From the NCBI GenBank assembly GCA_937128235.1, contig CAKZMG010000346.1:1-53225 (forward strand): a stretch of DNA of 53,225 bases, written 5' to 3'. This document shows, in pieces, positions 1,451 through 53,225 of this stretch; within the stretch, counting starts at the first letter, position 1, and every line of letters begins with the position of its first letter. A model generated the notes under the pieces. The model saw only the letters and a program-made list of their open reading frames with translations. It made no database searches and was not told the DNA's origin. The DNA comes from an uncultured Verrucomicrobiales bacterium (GTDB lineage: Bacteria; Verrucomicrobiota; Verrucomicrobiia; Verrucomicrobiales; Akkermansiaceae). Position numbers and translations under genes: made by a program.

Positions 1451-2074
1451 ATGAAGAAGTCTCAGCTAAAAAGAAGATGGAAAGATGAAGACTTCATCCA
1501 AGGTTTGTCTTTTCCTCTAGATAGGCTACCTAGCGAGATAGAACTGCAAGGTGCTGATATACGTGGTGCTGTTAAGCTAGGTCTAGATTTTCCTCTACAT
1601 TTGTTTCAGTTGTATCAAGTCTCGACGTCTAATGTAGATTTTACATACAGCGACGGTGCTCTAGGGATTCGGCAGTCGGTATTGAGCTCTTGTAGCTTCG
1701 ATGAATTTAAGTTTGATAGAGCTTCATCTTTTTATAACAGTAGTTTTACCAAGTGTAGTTTCCTCAGTTGTCGACTGAGAGCAGATATTTCGGACTGCAC
1801 TTTTACAGACTGTAATTTTGACTCTTCTAAGTTCGCTGGAGGATCTTCGGAATACGGTTTTACAAGGTGTGTATTTGAGAATTGTTCCTTCAGTGAAGCA
1901 GAGTGGAAGGGAACCTTTTTTAAGGCATGTAAGTTTATTGATTGTGATTTGAAGGGATTTAAGGTTAGTAAGTCATTAGTTACAGCAATAAGTCATGTTG
2001 GTTGTTCAGGCGATATTGAAGAGGTTTTTGTTGGTTCTGAAGTAAGGCGAATATCAGTTCTAAACCGAGACTAA
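1451..2074 (+). CDS. Pentapeptide-repeat protein, integron cassette 1
   Basis: 207 aa. Residues from about 75 to 170 are built of five-residue units with Phe at the central position and frequent Cys (SCSFDEFKF, KCSFLSCRL, DCTFTDCNF, NCSFSEAEW, ACKFIDCDL). This is the pattern of the right-handed quadrilateral beta-helix of pentapeptide-repeat proteins. Some relatives mimic DNA and protect gyrase; most have no known role, and none can be assigned here. There is no signal peptide or membrane segment. The ATG lies only 6 bases after the R' box at 1439-1445 with no visible Shine-Dalgarno, as is common for cassette genes. Its attC follows directly. Fold assignment is good, function unknown. Confidence 0.75.
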   Translation: MKKSQLKRRWKDEDFIQGLSFPLDRLPSEIELQGADIRGAVKLGLDFPLHLFQLYQVSTSNVDFTYSDGALGIRQSVLSSCSFDEFKFDRASSFYNSSFTKCSFLSCRLRADISDCTFTDCNFDSSKFAGGSSEYGFTRCVFENCSFSEAEWKGTFFKACKFIDCDLKGFKVSKSLVTAISHVGCSGDIEEVFVGSEVRRISVLNRD

Positions 2075-2077
2075 CTT

Positions 2078-2208
2078 GCCGAACAAGACGAGTCATAGCA
2101 ACATACTACCATCGGCCGCGTGAAGAAAGTTGACAGGAAGTTAGGAGGTTTTAATATGCAGTAGAGATCCGCTTACAGGTAGTATGCGCATGCTCTTGAA
2201 CGTTCTGC
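2078..2208 (+). other. attC: attC site of cassette 1
   Basis: 131-bp recombination site. R'' is GCCGAAC (2078-2084) and R' is GTTCTGC (2202-2208). The inner arms include the exact 9-bp inverted repeat CATACTACC (2102-2110) with GGTAGTATG (2178-2186). The next cassette starts with TAAGAAT after R'. Length, paired boxes and imperfect arms match an attC that folds as a bottom-strand hairpin. The fourth base of R' is C instead of the textbook purine. Confidence 0.82.
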
Positions 2209-2295
2209 TAAGAATTCACCCGTTAGATCAATTCACCATTTTAAATGGAATGGCATTGTTCTGATCAATATGAAACTACATTTCTACATAGAATT

Positions 2296-2478
2296 ATGAA
2301 GACCGATATTCTCATGATAATTGTCGGAATTAGTATTTGGGTATTCTTTGAATGGTTGAGAAATACCGAACGCTATCGAAAACAAGGCACATTCCATTTA
2401 ATGTTAGCAGGTCTAGTTGGAGTATGTATTTGTATAGGTGGATCTATCGTCTTTATAATAAGATCTTTCCTTGCATAG
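2296..2478 (+). CDS. Small membrane protein, integron cassette 2
   Basis: 60 aa if started at ATG 2296 (MKTDILM...). An upstream in-frame ATG at 2245 would add 17 polar residues. Two hydrophobic segments are visible: IVGISIWVFFEWL and, after a charged loop with TERYRKQGTF, LAGLVGVCICIGGSIVFII. It has the look of a two-helix inner-membrane protein. No family was recognised. Small membrane proteins are typical cassette cargo, and the position between two attC sites supports a real gene. No Shine-Dalgarno decides the start. Confidence 0.55.
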   Translation: MKTDILMIIVGISIWVFFEWLRNTERYRKQGTFHLMLAGLVGVCICIGGSIVFIIRSFLA

Positions 2479-2562
2479 CAAAGATGAACAGCTAGCCTAT
2501 TCTATGAAACGCACTGAAAACCAGTAAGCGACTCATCCAATGAAACCCAATCAAAATGCAGA

Positions 2563-3341
2563 ATCGGGTAGGTGAGGGATTTTAACCCTCACCCCCCACA
2601 CCACCTGCCATACGGATTTGCCTTTGGGCTCTGCGGTTTGACTTCGTGGTTTAGGTTTGCAGTGTAGCTCGGCGGTTTCAATGTGTCAGACTTACTTCCT
2701 CTTAGGTTGGTTTAGTACTTTCTTGAGGATAGCGAGCATTCACCCATTGTGTTTCTAGGCTGTGGAGTCCTTGGTCTTCTAGCCACACGTTCGTCAGTGC
2801 ATTGCGCACTATTTCTATGTGACTAACTCGCCATGCTCCCTTGCGACTTCCCAAAGTTAATTCGCTAATTTCACTCTGTCCCTTGGTGCGCCTAGCTTGA
2901 GCAGGTTCAATCGCCTCGCACGCGGTCGCTTCCATTGTTTATCCCTACGGGCTCTGCGGTCTGGCTTCGCATTGTAAATGAGCTATCGCTCTGTGCAGTC
3001 CAATAAAACATCCGCATTCTTCGACGTATCCAGCTGTCTAGCTCGCGCACTTCTCTGAAGAGTTGAATGACAGGATTCTTAGGAACTGCCGCGCTCTTAT
3101 TCATAGCTTGCCTGTGGCATCTCGTCCCACTCTCCAGACCTCGTATGAGGTTCTTATTCATCAGCTGGCAGATGTCCGATAACCTTCCTTCCCACAATCC
3201 CTCGCGGTCATGCAGTTGGCTTCTCGTAGTTCTTTTCATAGCTAGCAATTTCATTTGTTCTTCTATGTTCATTCCATTATAACAAGGGACTTGAACCCTT
3301 TCTAACTCCAGTGTATGCTTCGCACACACAAGACGTCGCAC
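2563..3341 (-). mobile_element. Internally deleted group IIC (attC-type) intron
   Basis: On the minus strand the element starts GTGCGAC (3341-3335), a group II 5' end. It has domain I-like sequence (GAAGGTTATCGGACA, GAGGTCTGGAGAG) and ends with a domain V/VI-like region: GGTGGTGTGGGG, then hairpin GTGAGGG/CCCTCAC (pairing 2572-2578 with 2586-2592), then CCTACCCGAT at 2563. This order and ending are typical of bacterial group IIC introns, a subset of which insert in integron attC sites. Intact members are about 2 kb; here only about 780 bp remain because most of the reverse-transcriptase gene in domain IV is lost. It lies on the bottom strand beside R'' of attC 2. The 5' boundary is less certain than the 3' one. 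Confidence 0.8.
2702..3075 (-). pseudogene. Remnant of group II intron reverse transcriptase/maturase (C-terminal pieces)
   Basis: Two separated pieces of the C-terminal maturase/X-domain region remain in different frames. The first encodes REVRELDSWIRRRMRMFYW (about 3075-3000), the usual segment near the maturase end. The second encodes SRKGAWRVSHIEIV and WLEDQGLHSLETQW (about 2860-2710), the usual C-terminal motif. Between them lie an insertion and a frameshift, although a short piece RPRARRLNLLKLG survives in a third frame. The RT core with YADD is absent. The intron can neither encode its own mobility protein nor be expected to move without help in trans. Confidence 0.8.
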
Positions 3342-3466
3342 GAGATCGCTGACAGCGCTTGCTTTATTCTACCCTTAGTGTAGTTTGGAAGTGTTCCACT
3401 GTTTCCGAGCTGATTTGCAGTTCATGTCAGCGACACGTGGACTCTACGTTCGGCTAAAAATCCACC

Positions 3467-5398: not shown

Positions 5399-6745
5399 CT
5401 ACAAGGAAGTTACCCTACGTAGCACAAGTCTCCCATAGAAAATAGTGACGATGGCTAGAGCGACATTGATCACTACTGATCCCCACCAGAAGGTCACTAG
5501 GTCCACATTCCAGACTCTCACGATGAGGTAGAAAACGCCTAGTGGTAAGATTATTTTGCGGATAATGGACTCCACGAAGCCATACATGGGTCGCTTCACA
5601 GCCTGAAGGAATCCGATGAAAATGAAGCCCATTACATATGCCCACTGCATCACGGTGACAATGCGCACATAGGTAGAACCAACGCTGATCACTTCTGGAT
5701 CAGATGTGAAGAGCCGGACTAGTGGGGTGGCTAGTAGGAACATCACCACTGAAGAAATGGCGATAAGGATAATGCCGTAGCGAATACAGAGACGGACACA
5801 TTCGTTGACCCTTTCTCGCTCACCCGCCCCATTGTTCTGCCCTACGATGGAAATGATCGCCGAGCTGAGACCGATGGCGGGGAGTAGGAAAATTTGTTCA
5901 ATTCTAGTGCCTACTCCAAAGGCGGCGACCGCTACTTCTCCGTAGGAATTTAAGTAATAAGTCATCACGAAGAACCCCAGAGCGATGGACATCATGTTAA
6001 AAGCTGTCGGGATGCCTTGCTTTAAAATTTCTCCATAGACTCTGAGCTGAGGGATGAAGAAGCCTGCATTACATTTCTTCAGGTATCCTCTACGCATCAC
6101 CGTCATCAGAAGATACGCACTGCCTAGGATCTGGATCACTACCGTAGCAAGAGCGATCCCGCGTATTCCCATCGCCGGAAGCCCCAGACCACCATAGAGA
6201 AACCATGGATCTAAAATGAGATTAAGAAAGAACCCTACTACCAAAACTTTTCCGAAAGTCTTGCTGTCACCATGCGCGAGCAAGATCGCATTGCACATGC
6301 TACTGAGAAGAAAGAACACTGAGCCCCAGAAAATAGGGGTAATGTATTCGGTAGCTAATCTCAGGGAATCGCCACTGGCATCCATCAGTCTGTAGAGCGG
6401 CTCGGCACCGAAGACTCCCACCAGCATGAGACCTAGCGCACAGAAAAAGCCGAGTGAAAATACCTGCCCTGAGTAGGCTCCCTCTTTTTCCAGATCATTC
6501 GCACCGATGGCATTTGCGATCAGGGCTGTGGCTCCTCTTGCTATACCCTCACTGATAGCAATGATAATGAAGAAGACCGGAAACGACAATGCCATAGCAG
6601 CGAGCGCGACCGTAGAAATCTGCCCCGCATAAAACGAGTCCACCACATTGTACATCGTGTTAAAAAAGAACCCGATACTCATCGGCAAAGCAATCCTGCG
6701 AATATGCCCTGAAAGTGGTCCAGTAGTAAGTGATGCGCCAGCCAT
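5399..6745 (-). CDS. MATE-family efflux transporter
   Basis: 448 aa, the usual length for multidrug and toxic compound extrusion proteins, which export drugs or metabolites through the inner membrane in exchange for Na+ or H+. The N-terminus (GPLSGHIRRIALPMSIGFFFNT) and the following MYNVVDSFYAGQ are the standard MATE entry. About twelve hydrophobic segments arranged as two six-helix halves follow. The second half opens with the related KQGIPTAFNMMSIALG. It ends about 120 bp beyond the integron remnants and is the first ordinary chromosomal gene to the right of array 1. It may be co-transcribed with the upstream dehydrogenase gene (gap 36 bp). Substrate cannot be predicted. Confidence 0.9.
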   Translation of the reverse strand: MAGASLTTGPLSGHIRRIALPMSIGFFFNTMYNVVDSFYAGQISTVALAAMALSFPVFFIIIAISEGIARGATALIANAIGANDLEKEGAYSGQVFSLGFFCALGLMLVGVFGAEPLYRLMDASGDSLRLATEYITPIFWGSVFFLLSSMCNAILLAHGDSKTFGKVLVVGFFLNLILDPWFLYGGLGLPAMGIRGIALATVVIQILGSAYLLMTVMRRGYLKKCNAGFFIPQLRVYGEILKQGIPTAFNMMSIALGFFVMTYYLNSYGEVAVAAFGVGTRIEQIFLLPAIGLSSAIISIVGQNNGAGERERVNECVRLCIRYGIILIAISSVVMFLLATPLVRLFTSDPEVISVGSTYVRIVTVMQWAYVMGFIFIGFLQAVKRPMYGFVESIIRKIILPLGVFYLIVRVWNVDLVTFWWGSVVINVALAIVTIFYGRLVLRRVTSL

Positions 6746-48312: not shown

Positions 48313-49287
48313 CTACAAATCATCCAGCGGGCTCCTCACCTTCCCAGCCATCGCCTTCATCACATGCGTATAGACCTCGGTCGTCTTCACGCTCTCATGG
48401 CCCAGCAGCTCCTGAATACTCCGCAGATCCACCCCAGCCTGTAATAAATGCGTAGCAAAGCTATGCCTCAAGACATGCGCAGTCACCTTCTTCTCTATCC
48501 CTGCTTTCCCCACCGCACTCTTCAGCCACTTACTCACCGCGCCCTCTAAAATATGATGCCTCTTATCCTCACCATCCCTAGGGTCCACACCACGCAGAGC
48601 AGTAGGAAATACCCAAAACCACTCCCAGCTCCTACTATACCTCCCCTGTCCCTTCCTATCCAATGCCTCATCCACATAAACTCTACTCTCTCCATAATTC
48701 TCCACATCCTCTTCAAAAATCAACCTAGCCCTAGCCACCTGCCTCTCCAGTTCAGATTTCAAATTCTCAGGCATACTCACACACCTATCCTTTCCGCCCT
48801 TACCATCTCTCACCCACACACAATCATTCTCAAAATCCACATCCTTCACTCTCAACCTCAACCCCTCACTCACCCTCAATCCACAACCATACAAAAGCCT
48901 CAACATCAAACTAGGCAGCCCTACCCTCACATGCTCAAACAAACGCCTAATTTCATCCCTGCTCAGCACCACAGGCAGCTTCTTCTTCACCTTTGCCCTA
49001 CGCGCATTCACCCCCACTAGCTCCATCTTCAGCACCTCCCGATACAAAAACACCAACGCATTAAATGCCTGATTCTGCGTCCCCACAGCCACATTCTTCT
49101 CCAAAGCCAGATAATTCAGAAATTCCTCCACCCCCTTTTCACCTAGCTCCTCTGGATGCCTTAACCCATGAAATTTCACATAACGCTTATACCAAGAAAC
49201 ATAACTCTTCTCAGTCCTATGCGCCATACCTAGCCGCCTCATAGCCGCTTTCATTTGATCTTCTAATCTCATTCCCTTCATATTCAA
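48313..49287 (-). CDS. intI: Integron integrase IntI (second, standard length)
   Basis: 324 aa. Tyrosine recombinase with all IntI traits: N-terminal SAM-like domain (MAHRTEKSYVSWYKRYVKFHG), KLPVVLSRDEIRRLF, catalytic Arg in YGCGLRVSEGLRLRVKDVD, the integron-specific insertion SWEWFWVFP followed by DKRHHILE, box [17 protein letters not shown], and the nucleophile in LLGHESVKTTEVYTHV. The start at 49287 can be moved to internal Met codons (49272). It differs clearly from the integrase at 1-1157 (no long N-terminal extension), so the genome holds two integron systems. Its divergent array begins at 49399. Confidence 0.95.
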   Translation of the reverse strand: MNMKGMRLEDQMKAAMRRLGMAHRTEKSYVSWYKRYVKFHGLRHPEELGEKGVEEFLNYLALEKNVAVGTQNQAFNALVFLYREVLKMELVGVNARRAKVKKKLPVVLSRDEIRRLFEHVRVGLPSLMLRLLYGCGLRVSEGLRLRVKDVDFENDCVWVRDGKGGKDRCVSMPENLKSELERQVARARLIFEEDVENYGESRVYVDEALDRKGQGRYSRSWEWFWVFPTALRGVDPRDGEDKRHHILEGAVSKWLKSAVGKAGIEKKVTAHVLRHSFATHLLQAGVDLRSIQELLGHESVKTTEVYTHVMKAMAGKVRSPLDDL

Positions 49288-49424: not shown

Positions 49425-50129
49425 ATGCCTGATAACATCCCATTCCCCCTATACCACGGAACCTCAACGTTGTTTATGGATAGTATTTTCTCTGAAGGTC
49501 TTGGAGGTATCGACCCGATCAAAAAAAATCGAATCATTGATTTAGCTAGAGAAGTTAAGTCATTAGCAGACGCTAATTTAGCTGATTGCCCTGATTATCA
49601 AAGCCGACGATTTTCCTTTGATCAAATGACTAAACAATCAACAGGTCAATTTAACTGGCAACATGGAGAGTCCTATCTTTCACCTTCTATTCACACTGCT
49701 ATACGCTACGCCACCAACAAGAGATTTGGTTCTGAGATCGTTACATATACGCTTGATATATTAACCGAGCTAATAAGGAGAAAGATTCCAGGAGTAACTG
49801 ACAATCTTTTTCAAAAGTATCCCCAAGCATTTGGTTGGCTTGATTCATCGCCAAGCCCGTTATTAATCCGAGTGAATGATGTTTCCAGAGCATACCTTGA
49901 ATCCGAAACTAATACTTCGTGCTCTCAACAAATTGCAAAACTTGAATCTTTACTAAAGCATGAACCAAAGTCATTCGGGTTAGTCGGACAACAAATGAAT
50001 TTTCGGTTATCAGGACCTATATCTGCAAATCAAATTGAACTGTTCTTAATTCAGGTCACTGAATGGCAATCTCACGGTCCAACCTTTAACTTATACCCAA
50101 TTAACCCGACAAAAACAGAACTGGGCTAA
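49425..50129 (+). CDS. ADP-ribosyltransferase-fold protein, cassette A of integron 2
   Basis: 234 aa. The N-terminus FPLYHGTSTLFMDSIFSEGLGG has the 'LYHGT...I..GL' pattern of the ADP-ribosyltransferase/tRNA 2'-phosphotransferase fold, and GESYLSPSIHTAIRYATNKRFG supplies the second strand-helix (Y-S/T-S-x...A..YA). The third motif residue (Glu or Gln) is not certain. Families of this kind include toxins, defence effectors and modifying enzymes. It is the first cassette, so it should be the best expressed from Pc. Function is only predicted. Confidence 0.6.
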   Translation: MPDNIPFPLYHGTSTLFMDSIFSEGLGGIDPIKKNRIIDLAREVKSLADANLADCPDYQSRRFSFDQMTKQSTGQFNWQHGESYLSPSIHTAIRYATNKRFGSEIVTYTLDILTELIRRKIPGVTDNLFQKYPQAFGWLDSSPSPLLIRVNDVSRAYLESETNTSCSQQIAKLESLLKHEPKSFGLVGQQMNFRLSGPISANQIELFLIQVTEWQSHGPTFNLYPINPTKTELG

Positions 50130-50250
50130 CAAGGCGCAGTAGCTAACCTCATGGGCGCCTTTCCAGTCAAAGCTTTCACTCAACTATAACCATTAAATAC
50201 GTATCTACCATCGCTCTCTCCCATGAGGTAGCTATGCTGATACGTTCTGC
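50124..50250 (+). other. attC: attC site of cassette A (intact)
   Basis: 127 bp. R'' is GGCTAAC (50124-50130) and R' is GTTCTGC (50244-50250). The arms are nearly perfect: TAGCTA-A-CCTCATGGG (about 50140-50155) against CCCATGAGGTAGCTA (50220 onward), with one extrahelical A. The sequence GGCGCAGTAG between R'' and the arm is the same as at the insertion point of the IS in the two following attC sites, so it shows the empty target. Confidence 0.9.
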
Positions 50251-50261
50251 TAAAAATAACT

Positions 50262-50516
50262 ATGTCTTCAGATAAATCAAAAAGTAAGAATATTGAAACA
50301 ACTGTCGAAAAGACCGAGCTGGGGATGCGTATATTATTTGCTATAATAGCTGGAACTATCTTCGCCGTTATCGGATTTACTGCTGGAGCTCTTATCTGGT
50401 CAGGAATTGGCGTTATTTTAGCTTTAGTCCTTTTCCCTATAGGAGCCCTTTACGGTTTCTTTTGTGATTATATCAACGCTATTCTTAGATCTTTTTTGAA
50501 TTCTTTTCTAGAATAA
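50262..50516 (+). CDS. Small membrane protein, cassette B
   Basis: 84 aa. A charged N-terminus (SSDKSKSKNIETTVEKTE) is followed by two membrane helices, ILFAIIAGTIFAVIGFTAGALIW and IGVILALVLFPIGALYGFF, and an amphipathic end (INAILRSFLNSFLE). No family was recognised. It starts 11 bases after the R' of attC A. Small two-helix proteins appear in both arrays here. Confidence 0.6.
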   Translation: MSSDKSKSKNIETTVEKTELGMRILFAIIAGTIFAVIGFTAGALIWSGIGVILALVLFPIGALYGFFCDYINAILRSFLNSFLE

Positions 50517-50606
50517 CCGTGCTAAAATAAATCCACTCAACAAGTAACCAGCCAAATGAAACCAGCCATATGAAACCAAACAAAAATGCAGAACAAGTCG
50601 CAGTAG

Positions 50607-51273
50607 GTTCTTAATCAAGAAAAAAAACACAAAACTTCCCCAACCCTGTAAGCTATTCATTTTTAATTTCTTAGGGTTGTTTCGTCCTTTGCTCTGGGCA
50701 GATGGCAACTGCGCCAGCGAGACGCTTGGAGTCGCCACAGGACTTCCGTGTTCTGTGTGAACTGATGATCTGGGCAGGAGCCTTTGCTCGCTCGTTTGAC
50801 CGTAATGGTGTGTTGTTTTATCAGGGCGCCTTATTGTGCTGCGAAGCTTGGCGCGCTGACCTCTCACATCTCTAAGCAGGTTCTAGGGACTCTTTGACTT
50901 CTCCTACAGTTTCGCTCTGTTAGGAGCTGGGCTGCTGGGGGTGTCATCGAGAGCTCGACCAGGCGTCTCTCTGTTCCACTCATTTTTTTATACGAGGATC
51001 TGAACAGGGGCGCGAGCTCTGGGAGGCAACCGAATGGTTCATCTGATTCGATTGTGGTGAGCTTTTTGCTGGGGCTCATCGGGTCCATGGTCTTTATGGA
51101 GGATTGTGGTAGGTAAATGTTGGCGCAGGGTTCATTCAGCCAAACGGAGCTCTCGGTCCATGGCTCACATCTCTGCGGGCTATGGCTGAGGCTCATGCGA
51201 CTTGTCGGAACTCTCTGCGCCTCCTCCGGCGCTTCCGGGCTGCTGCGGTGTGTCATCAGTTGCATATCAGTGT
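50607..51273 (-). ncRNA. Non-coding end of the IS: candidate guide (bridge/seek) RNA region
   Basis: No credible protein frame, yet the sequence is moderately GC-rich and full of short inverted words. CAACCCT (50641-50647) pairs with AGGGTTG (50673-50679). At 51122-51143 the plus strand reads GGCGCAG...TCAGCCAA: the first word matches the attC target left of the insertion (GGCGCAG) and the second the right junction (TCAGCCAA). Guides that copy both target flanks are what an IS110/IS1111 RNA needs. Exact RNA ends and strand are unknown. Confidence 0.45.
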
Positions 51274-52524
51274 TCAGATAGTGGGCTGTGACTTCGCAGG
51301 GCGACGGCGGCGGTTTCTTCGCTTGCGGCGGCGCGGGGCTGCCTCAGGGTCAGGTGTATGGAGAAAATTGTTAGAGTCTTCAGTTCTACTAGAGTTGTTA
51401 GTTCTGTTAGATGCAGAGTTGTTAGAAAATTGTTCGGGGTCGAAGTCGGTGTGGTGTTTCCACATGGACCAGAGGGTTTTGAGGATTTTTCGCTGGGTGT
51501 TGAGTCTGGCGTGGCGGATGCTTGTGCGCTTTTTACTGGATTCGTAGAAGTCTCTGACGCAGCTACTCTGCGCACCTACGCGGATGCCGGTGCGCCAGGC
51601 GTGATAGGAGACATTTTTGAGTTCGCGCTGGCCGCAGCGGTTGATGCGTTGGTAGCCAAGGGGCTTGTTGTCGCTGTCTCGGGAGACGATTCCTAGTGCA
51701 CAGTATGTGTGGAGTTTACTGACGCTTTTGAAGCGGTGTGGATCTTCTATCAGAGCGCTGAAGACGGCTGCTCCTATATCGCCTATGCCGGGGACTTGCT
51801 GGAAGAGGGCTATTTCTGGAAGGTGCTGGCTCATTATTTTGATTTCATTGAATTGGCTTTTCCAGGCTGCTAGGGTGACGTCGTGGATGTTGTAAAGATG
51901 ATGGATTCCTTTGCTGTGATTGAGTGGGAGTAGGTCTAGCCAATGTTGTCTTTTTTCTGGATGATAAATTTCTTTACCGTTGAGCTTGAGGATGCCGAAG
52001 GTGCGGTAGGCGCTTTTGATGAGGATTTTGAGTTGGCGTTGTTGGTCACGAAGGCAGAGGAGGGATTGGACGGCTTCGCGGAAGAGTTGGCGTTGTGGGT
52101 CATCGCCGCACCAGACTTCTGTTAGTTCGCCCATTCTTAGTAGCCGGCAGAGACTGCTGACGTCTGCTTCGTCGTTTTTGTTAGGGACGTTGATGATGAG
52201 TTTGTTTTTTCTTGGATCACAGATGATGCATTTTTCGACTTTTGTTTTTAGAATATTTCGCGCCCATTTTGCAGCTGGCGCAGACTCGACGGTGAGGACG
52301 ACGGTGTAGTCTTTGCTAAATTCTGCAACGTGCTTGATGAGGTTTTGTTTGTTGGTCTCAAATCGTGTAGTTGGTGACATGGCTCCATCTTGAGTCATCC
52401 CTCCTATGACTGATGTTTTTGAATGGAGATCAATGGCTACGTAGATGATTGGCTTGGAGCTGTTAGACTGTATGCTGAGCAGTTCCGCTGCTAGGCTTGT
52501 TGTGGTTTGTTGTTTTATTTTCAT
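51274..52524 (-). CDS. tnp: IS110/IS1111-family transposase (DEDD + serine)
   Basis: 416 aa from ATG 52524 (MKIKQQTTTSL); a longer frame to 52566 would run towards the end of the element. RuvC-like N-terminal half: IIYVAIDLHSKTSVIG (Asp), VVLTVESAPAAKW (Glu), NVPNKNDEADVSSLCRLL (Asp pair). C-terminal Tnp20 half: ALFQQVPGIGDIGAAVFSALIEDPHRFKSVSKLHTYCALGIVSRDSD with the candidate Ser, then NRCGQRELKNVSYHAW. An unusual tail of about 55 residues, first Ser/Asn-rich, then Arg-rich (PRRRKRRNRRRRP), ends the protein. It works with a guide RNA to select the target. Confidence 0.92.
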   Translation of the reverse strand: MKIKQQTTTSLAAELLSIQSNSSKPIIYVAIDLHSKTSVIGGMTQDGAMSPTTRFETNKQNLIKHVAEFSKDYTVVLTVESAPAAKWARNILKTKVEKCIICDPRKNKLIINVPNKNDEADVSSLCRLLRMGELTEVWCGDDPQRQLFREAVQSLLCLRDQQRQLKILIKSAYRTFGILKLNGKEIYHPEKRQHWLDLLPLNHSKGIHHLYNIHDVTLAAWKSQFNEIKIMSQHLPEIALFQQVPGIGDIGAAVFSALIEDPHRFKSVSKLHTYCALGIVSRDSDNKPLGYQRINRCGQRELKNVSYHAWRTGIRVGAQSSCVRDFYESSKKRTSIRHARLNTQRKILKTLWSMWKHHTDFDPEQFSNNSASNRTNNSSRTEDSNNFLHTPDPEAAPRRRKRRNRRRRPAKSQPTI

Positions 52525-52703
52525 GTTGTTTGTTTTGTGGTTCCATGTAAGATACCATATCAACAACCCGAGATTAACAACGACTCAGCCAACCACCTAG
52601 GGCGCCTTTTCAGTTAAGTTTTCACACAATTATAACCATTAAACCAGTAGCAAAGTTCGCTCTCCCCTAGGTGGTGGCTATGCTATGACGTTCTCCTAAA
52701 AAT

Positions 52704-53063
52704 ATGCACATCAAATGCTCAAACTGTGATGCAACACTAACCAAGTTTTTGATACAAGTAGACGATACCTTTCACCCAACATTTCCTGACAATGAGAATA
52801 CCATTCCCAGCGGTAAGTATTGGATAGGTAAAGATCTTCCAACAACAACATGTGACAATCATATATTCATCAACCTAGGTGATGCGATCAATCTAAAGAA
52901 ACATCCAGATTCAAGCAGACACAATGGTTGTTGTGGTGAAGATGGCGGTGATGGACCTAATCTAATCTGCTGGTGCGAAGTCCCTGTTGCTACAAAGGTT
53001 TCAGATTGCTGGACTAGCTATTACATACATTTTGAGCCAGAACTAATTAAAATCTCTGAGTAA
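52704..53063 (+). CDS. Cys-rich hypothetical protein, cassette C of integron 2
   Basis: 119 aa. Metal-site candidates: CSNCD near the N-terminus and SRHNGCCGEDGGDGPNLICWCEVPVATKVSDCW in the second half (CC, CxC, DCW). The block with GCCG..G.DG.N..C.C...V....SDCW has the look of a small family seen as stray cassette or immunity-like genes, but the role is unknown. No signal peptide. It starts 8 bases after R' of attC B, so a ribosome site would have to lie in the attC end. Its attC is again hit by an IS copy. Confidence 0.6.
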   Translation: MHIKCSNCDATLTKFLIQVDDTFHPTFPDNENTIPSGKYWIGKDLPTTTCDNHIFINLGDAINLKKHPDSSRHNGCCGEDGGDGPNLICWCEVPVATKVSDCWTSYYIHFEPELIKISE

Positions 53064-53137: not shown

Positions 53138-53225
53138 GGAGAACAAGGCGCAGTAGGTTCTTAATCAAGAAAAAAAACACAAAACTTCCCCAACCCTGTA
53201 AGCTATTCATTTTTAATTTCTTAGG
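53138..53225 (+). other. attC: Left part of attC of cassette C, disrupted at 53157
   Basis: R'' GGAGAAC (53138-53144), preceded by AAACCAATAAAAAAT, and then AAGGCGCAGTAG as in attC A. At 53157 the sequence changes to GTTCTTAATCAAG, the left end of the IS. The right half lies beyond the window. Confidence 0.75.
53157..53225 (-). mobile_element. Second copy of the IS110-type element (first 69 bp in window)
   Basis: 53157-53225 is base-for-base identical to 50607-50675 and sits at the same point of attC and in the same orientation. The shared stretch reaches back to 53150 because the target sequence GCAGTAG is itself shared. The rest of the copy is outside the window. Confidence 0.85.

What the first reader, a model, noticed from the sequence alone, without database searches (positions are those of the whole stretch)
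50588..52696. IS110/IS1111-type element inserted precisely in an attC; removal restores a perfect 127-bp site
Seen: R'' at 50588 and R' at 52690 are 2109 bp apart. Deleting 50607-52588 leaves 127 bp, the same as the intact attC A (50124-50250), and the two arms then pair perfectly with one extrahelical A in the same place. Both junctions carry AG. Known: the IS1111-attC group inserts site-specifically in attC sites. Inference: this is a divergent member in a different bacterial lineage with its own attC type. The insertion destroys the attC hairpin and would freeze the cassette.
Basis: partly seen in the sequence, partly recalled or inferred. Interest (0 to 1): 0.78.

Follow-up and report, generated by a model that had tools for sequence, protein, structure and literature searches.

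The report
RNA-guided jumping element inside integron attC
A mobile DNA element in a marine bacterium sits precisely inside the recombination site of an integron gene cassette, and it carries what looks like the RNA guide that leads it there.

Summary
A 1982-bp IS (50607-52588) splits an attC. The joined flanks match an intact attC of the same genome for 20 bp across the junction, and the contig ends inside a second copy at the same place in the next attC. The host is probably Rubritalea (Verrucomicrobiota).

Relatives in two other genomes (80% and 54% identical transposase) also lie in attC at the matching place. A more distant lineage (G789, 35%; fragment G834) does too, and G789 has a filled and an empty attC in one array. 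The layout is IS1111-type: DEDD transposase, long 3' non-coding region, subterminal repeats.

Just after the transposase lies a conserved 101-nt RNA hairpin whose internal loop matches the attC target (14 of 16 nt). In G789 and G834 the same loop matches their attC exactly, and both differ at the same base as their targets. A second block carries 5-8 nt of each element's own end in 9 of 9 elements.

Best reading: an IS1111-type RNA-guided element homing to attC, from a lineage far from any plasmid-borne one. Weak points: G512's guide does not match, G002's is off by 3 nt, the second guide strand is not significant, and kinship to the named IS1111-attC group was not testable.

The parts
50607..52588 (-). 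IS1111-type insertion sequence, 1982 bp (ends ambiguous by 2 bp because AG stands at both junctions)
   Evidence: same ends in G002 and G512
51274..52566 (-). transposase ORF, 430 aa from TTG; more likely start ATG at 52524 (416 aa); DEDD residues D46, E94, D132, D135 and S298 (430-aa numbering); Arg-rich C-terminal tail
   Evidence: PF02371 E 6.7e-12; NF033542 102.8 bits, below its cut-off of 140; motif columns (roles of the residues recalled)
51121..51221 (-). predicted target-guide hairpin, just downstream of the transposase stop
51190..51205 (-). candidate guide, 5' side of the internal loop: ACAAGUCGCAUGAGCC against ACAAGTCGCAGTAGCC of the target (14 of 16, spans the junction)
51138..51145 (-). 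weak candidate guide, 3' side of the loop: GUUUGGCU against GGTTGGCT (7 of 8)
   Evidence: read; best exact match TTGGCT not significant, P 0.46
50877..50884 (-). candidate donor guide AGAACCUG, equal to the IS right end plus junction
50607..50616 (+). subterminal repeat GTTCTTAATC (transposase-distal end)
52572..52581 (-). subterminal repeat GTTGTTAATC (9 of 10 with the other; 2 of 1000 shuffles as good)
50588..50606 (+). attC B, left part (R'' and 5' arm up to the junction)
52589..52696 (+). attC B, right part (rest of 5' arm, loop, 3' arm, R')
50124..50250 (+). attC A, intact comparison site
53138..53156 (+). attC C, left part, ending at a second copy of the IS
53157..53225 (-). second IS copy, first 69 bp only; contig ends
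48313..49287 (-). integron integrase gene
   Evidence: TIGR02249 392.3 bits, cut-off 265
49425..50129 (+). cassette 1 ORF (no Pfam hit)
50262..50516 (+). cassette 2 ORF (no Pfam hit); its attC carries the IS
52704..53063 (+). cassette 3 ORF (no Pfam hit); its attC carries the second copy

Best explanation
The element is an IS1111-type insertion sequence that homes to attC sites by RNA guidance. The transposase binds an RNA from the 3' non-coding region. One loop of this RNA pairs with the R''-L'' arm of attC around the insertion point; a second segment pairs with the joined ends of the excised circle. The enzyme recombines the two at a short core, always in one orientation (transposase antisense to the cassettes). 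Because the guide reads the part of attC that cassettes of one integron share, the element can enter cassette after cassette; it separates the two attC arms and so probably blocks excision of that cassette. Shown: precise insertion, repeated insertion at the same place, IS1111-type layout, conserved hairpin, sequence match of loop and target. Inferred: RNA expression and binding, circle intermediate, block of excision.
For: Insertion in attC: both junctions in window attC B, G002, G512 and G789; one junction in window attC C, in G789's second copy and in G834. Empty sites: G000:C6 and, within one array, G789. Layout: 3' non-coding region 667 nt, 5' 64 nt; subterminal repeats. Hairpin: on the alignment of win, G002 and G512, 10 of 34 pairs changed on both sides, 92 of 100 cells paired, 0 of 500 shuffles as good on covariation, slid controls 0-2 pairs; z -6.0 win, -6.0 G002, -3.5 G512, -2.7 G789. 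Guide match: win 14 of 16, P 0.001 against 32-mers of the same contig; G789 11 of 11, P 0.0105; G834 10 of 10, P 0.0095; the G789 and G834 guides differ at the base where their targets differ, and fit their own target better than each other's (11 and 10 against 8.8 and 7.8). In a scan of the whole non-coding region 2 of 150 shuffles reached the window's score and 1 of 400 random 30-mers did. Donor block: 5-8 nt of the own right end in 9 of 9 elements; 3 of 20000 permutations, 16 of 5040 with one representative per type.
Against: G512's loop does not match its target better than chance (P 0.52). G002 has the window's guide, but its insertion lies 3 nt nearer R'', so its 10-of-10 match stands in another register. 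The second target strand is not significant in any of the five (best P 0.06). Donor matches in a whole-region scan are modest or absent (P 0.07, 0.02, 0.03, 0.64, 0.57 for win, G002, G512, G789, G834), the donor block was picked by eye, and two right ends match another element's block better than their own. G834's hairpin is no more stable than shuffles (z -0.76). The structure counted was predicted from the same three sequences. No RNA data.
Confidence: 0.85

Rival explanations
1. It is an IS1111-type element that recognises attC by the protein or by the folded hairpin, not by an RNA guide; the loop matches are chance or shared ancestry.
For: G512 inserts at the matching place with a loop that does not match. 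The position relative to the two extrahelical bases is alike in window and G512, which hints at shape. The 3' guide strand is not significant.
Against: G789 and G834 loops match their own attC exactly and differ at the base that differs in the targets. Seek/bridge RNAs are shown for this enzyme family (PMC11187229, PMC11208160, passages read).
Confidence: 0.1
2. Not attC-specific: the element uses a broader target and only happens to be in cassettes because the arrays are rich in repeats.
For: The 36-40% identical relatives G448, G332 and G445 show no attC at their junctions by eye; G758 and G1016 are decayed, with flanks I could not recognise.
Against: 4 of 4 insertions in the 54-100% identical group and 3 of 3 right-end junctions in the G789/G834 group are in attC at the matching place; none elsewhere in the genomes searched.
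Confidence: 0.04
3. Assembly artefact: the two copies in the window are one, or the IS is misplaced in the MAG.
For: The contig ends inside the second copy and the genome has 347 contigs.
Against: The two left flanks differ (AACAAGTCG against AACAAGGCG); independent assemblies G002, G512 and G789 show the same arrangement.
Confidence: 0.01

Closest known systems
IS1111-attC elements (ISKpn4, ISPst6, ISPa25, ISPa21)
   Same: IS1111-type elements in one place of attC; for ISKpn4 and ISPst6 an RNA from the region downstream of tnp co-purifies with the transposase and matches both strands of the target (PMC11187229, passages and section 9)
   Different: Host phylum; transposase at best about 25% identical to the listed plasmid-borne IS110-family proteins; own attC type; whether the exact place in attC is the same could not be compared because their sequences were not held
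IS621 and other IS110-group elements with bridge RNA
   Same: DEDD/serine transposase type, target loop and donor segment in one non-coding region
   Different: Here the region is 3' of tnp, the IS1111 arrangement described in PMC11208160 (passages)
Group IIC-attC introns
   Same: Also home to attC
   Different: Retroelement; no relation. Group II introns are present in the same genome

Membership tests
IS110/IS1111 (DEDD) family | DEDD catalytic residues and the C-terminal Transposase_20 domain | tested here: met
   PF02371 46.1 bits, cut-off 21.3; D46, E94, D132, D135 and S298 aligned in all 7 full-length relatives (residue roles recalled). NF033542 scored 102.8, below its cut-off of 140
IS1111 group | long non-coding region downstream of tnp | tested here: met
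   3' 667 nt, 5' 64 nt
IS1111 group | subterminal inverted repeats, usually 11-13 bp, 7 bp outside on the left and 3 on the right (PMC11187229) | tested here: inconclusive
   Window 10 bp with 9 matching, 7 bp outside at one end, 0-2 at the other, 2 of 1000 shuffles; G002 and G512 only TTAATC (16 and 14 of 1000); G789 10 of 10
IS1111 group | in the RNA, complement of the top strand stands 5' of complement of the bottom strand (PMC11187229) | tested here: inconclusive
   Order is as expected, but the bottom-strand match is not significant
IS1111-attC group | insertion at one place and orientation in attC | tested here: met
   4 of 4 and 3 of 3 junction sets
IS1111-attC group | transposase clusters with ISKpn4, ISPst6 and ISPa21 | not testable with these tools
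   No named member held (one search found no record for EF648212); indirect: 331 plasmid records matched, all below 60%, the 30 listed at 22.8-24.6%
IS1111-attC group | seekRNA bound to the transposase | not testable with these tools
   Predicted hairpin only
Integron attC site | R''/R' ends, paired arms with extrahelical bases, integrase gene nearby | tested here: met

The most novel reading that the evidence does not exclude
A verrucomicrobial lineage of RNA-guided elements has specialised on integrons: its guide RNA follows the host's attC type as that drifts (Rubritalea guide ACAAGUCGCA..., G789 guide ACACAGCGCUG, G834 guide ACACCGCGCUG), possibly independently of the proteobacterial IS1111-attC group. 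In one genome it shares attC with a second, only 21% identical IS110-type element and with group II introns, so attC would be a recurrent docking site for programmable elements.
Probability: 0.4. Interest if true: 0.75.

Novelty: new variant of a known kind. Interest (0 to 1): 0.6.

Why it matters
It gives naturally varying pairs of guide RNA and integron site in one enzyme lineage. These can be used to work out how IS1111-type guides read their target, and to ask whether attC homing arose once or several times. It also names a way in which cassette arrays outside the clinical class 1 integrons may be locked.

Tried and rejected
Viral contigs: 3 scans found no relative. Rfam: nothing credible on the IS; gathering hits only for group II introns in L008. 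Structure prediction failed (2 sequences, pLDDT 39.3), so no fold search was made. PDB: one match at E 0.07, not used. A first guide idea, the loop GGCGCAGUU near the right end, was dropped: its pairing was not conserved in G512 and the hairpin at 51121-51221 had covariation. Folding energy as proof of the joint was dropped because 9 of 100 other joints fold as well. One search folded a G512 segment cut short (z 0.12); one search repeats it whole (z -3.49). Relatives of the C118 element: of 4 other genomes I fetched all four, inspected the flanks of G022 alone, and saw no attC.

Full report
What is there. The window is one whole contig (G000:C346) of a 3.86-Mb, 347-contig assembly. An 80% identical copy lies in a genome of the same genus whose contig is titled uncultured Rubritalea, so the host is probably Rubritalea, Verrucomicrobiota. 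The integron has an integrase at 48313-49287 (392 bits), cassette 1 with intact attC A, cassette 2 with the interrupted attC B, and cassette 3 whose attC C is entered by a second copy at 53157 just before the contig ends.

The joint. Removing 50607-52588 gives a 127-bp attC. Its energy is good, but 9 of 100 other joints do as well, and the longest stem lies on one side of the junction, so folding is not the proof. The proof is that intact attCs of the same genome carry the same sequence across the junction, in one case 20 identical bp. The 5' arm has two extrahelical bases, G and A.

Relatives. G002 (80% identical) sits at GTCGCA|GCGAACC. G512 (54%, another family of the order) sits at GTCGCA|CTCAACTC. 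All are in attC, in the same orientation, with the junction 3 nt before the A that precedes the inner arm. G789 (35%) lies in an array with an integron integrase (262.9 bits, cut-off 265). Its filled site joins to GGCGTTGGCTC|CAGCGCTGTGTTAGGC, which is what the empty attC of the same array reads; a second copy's right end has the same flank. G834 is a fragment with the right end followed by AGCGCGGTGTTAGGC. Searches: 98 relatives, 387 of the phylum, 386 of the order, 384 of the class and 320 of G789's order; these sets overlap. No copy of the two groups was found outside attC. Further relatives (G448, G332, G445; 36-40%) show no attC at their ends by eye; G758, G1016, G1047 and G975 are decayed.

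Enzyme. The four DEDD residues and the serine are conserved in the 7 full-length relatives (roles recalled). In a FastTree tree the relatives form one clade apart from four plasmid proteins and from the C118 element; the window group lies with G758 and beside G448/G332/G445, and the G789 group branches separately. So attC homing is either old or was gained more than once. Window and G002 have an Arg-rich tail; in G512 a similar stretch lies in another frame (by eye). G448, G332, G445 and G789 lack it.

Guide RNA. The transposase is followed by 667 nt without it. On the alignment of the window, G002 and G512 a 101-nt hairpin is supported by 10 of 34 pairs changed on both sides (the structure came from the same sequences, and there are only three). 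Its z-score is -6.0 in the window, -6.0 in G002, -3.5 in G512; the corresponding hairpins give -2.7 in G789 and -0.8 in G834. The 5' side of the internal loop matches the target in the window (14 of 16), G789 (11 of 11) and G834 (10 of 10), P about 0.001-0.01 each. G002 carries the window's loop and matches 10 of 10, but 3 nt out of register; G512 does not match (P 0.52). The 3' side is not significant.

Donor segment. A block in the same region contains 5-8 nt of the element's own right end in 9 of 9 elements (3 of 20000 permutations; 16 of 5040 with representatives). It was chosen by eye, and G789, G834 and G445 right ends match another element's block better than their own. Whole-region scans gave P 0.02-0.07 for the three Rubritalea-type elements and nothing for G789 and G834.

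Known work. IS1111 elements that target attC, and RNA guides for ISKpn4 and ISPst6, are in print (PMC11187229, passages and section 9; PMC11208160, passages). Passages of PMC11616780, PMC5034289, PMC12444791, PMC11089894 and PMC9229058 were seen; the Shewanella paper (PMC9229058) detected no IS interrupting attC. The original IS1111-attC paper was not held. I found no paper on attC-targeting IS in Verrucomicrobiota: searches (listings), in a library that lacks most subscription journals.

Verdict. The kind is known; the lineage, its attC type and the naturally varying guide-target pairs are new to me. Confidence 0.85 that it is an RNA-guided IS1111-type element homing to attC.

Noticed in passing
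L009 (G000:C118) 1780-3416: A second IS110-family element (21% identical transposase; 5' non-coding region 328 nt, 3' 29 nt, so IS110-type) interrupts another attC about ten bases from where the window element inserts. Its 5' region holds CCTCAGTAGTT equal to its own right end (11 nt, P 0.008), next to CTATAAA; target match not significant.
   Followed up: partly
L008 (G000:C6) 1240-1543: Group II intron (RF02001, 110.7 bits) in the cassette array, reverse-transcriptase motif antisense to the cassettes; by eye a second copy starts at the contig end.
   Followed up: no
L008 (G000:C6) 5538-6680: A second integron integrase in the same genome (TIGR02249, 303.2 bits).
   Followed up: no
L098 (G002:C50): An IS110-family transposase gene starts downstream of an attC whose R' is followed directly by unrelated sequence; possibly another IS at the R' end.
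   Followed up: no
51274-51400: The transposase 3' end (Arg-rich tail) is almost identical in DNA between the window and G002, more than the rest of the gene (by eye); it may overlap an RNA.
   Followed up: no
G002:C177 (L021) insertion: Insertion is 3 nt nearer R'' than in the window although the guide loop is the same.
   Followed up: partly
L062 (G445) just outside the right end: An inverted repeat CGAACATCAGCGTT...AACGCTGATGTTCG about 130 bp apart lies beside the IS; could be an unusual recombination site.
   Followed up: no
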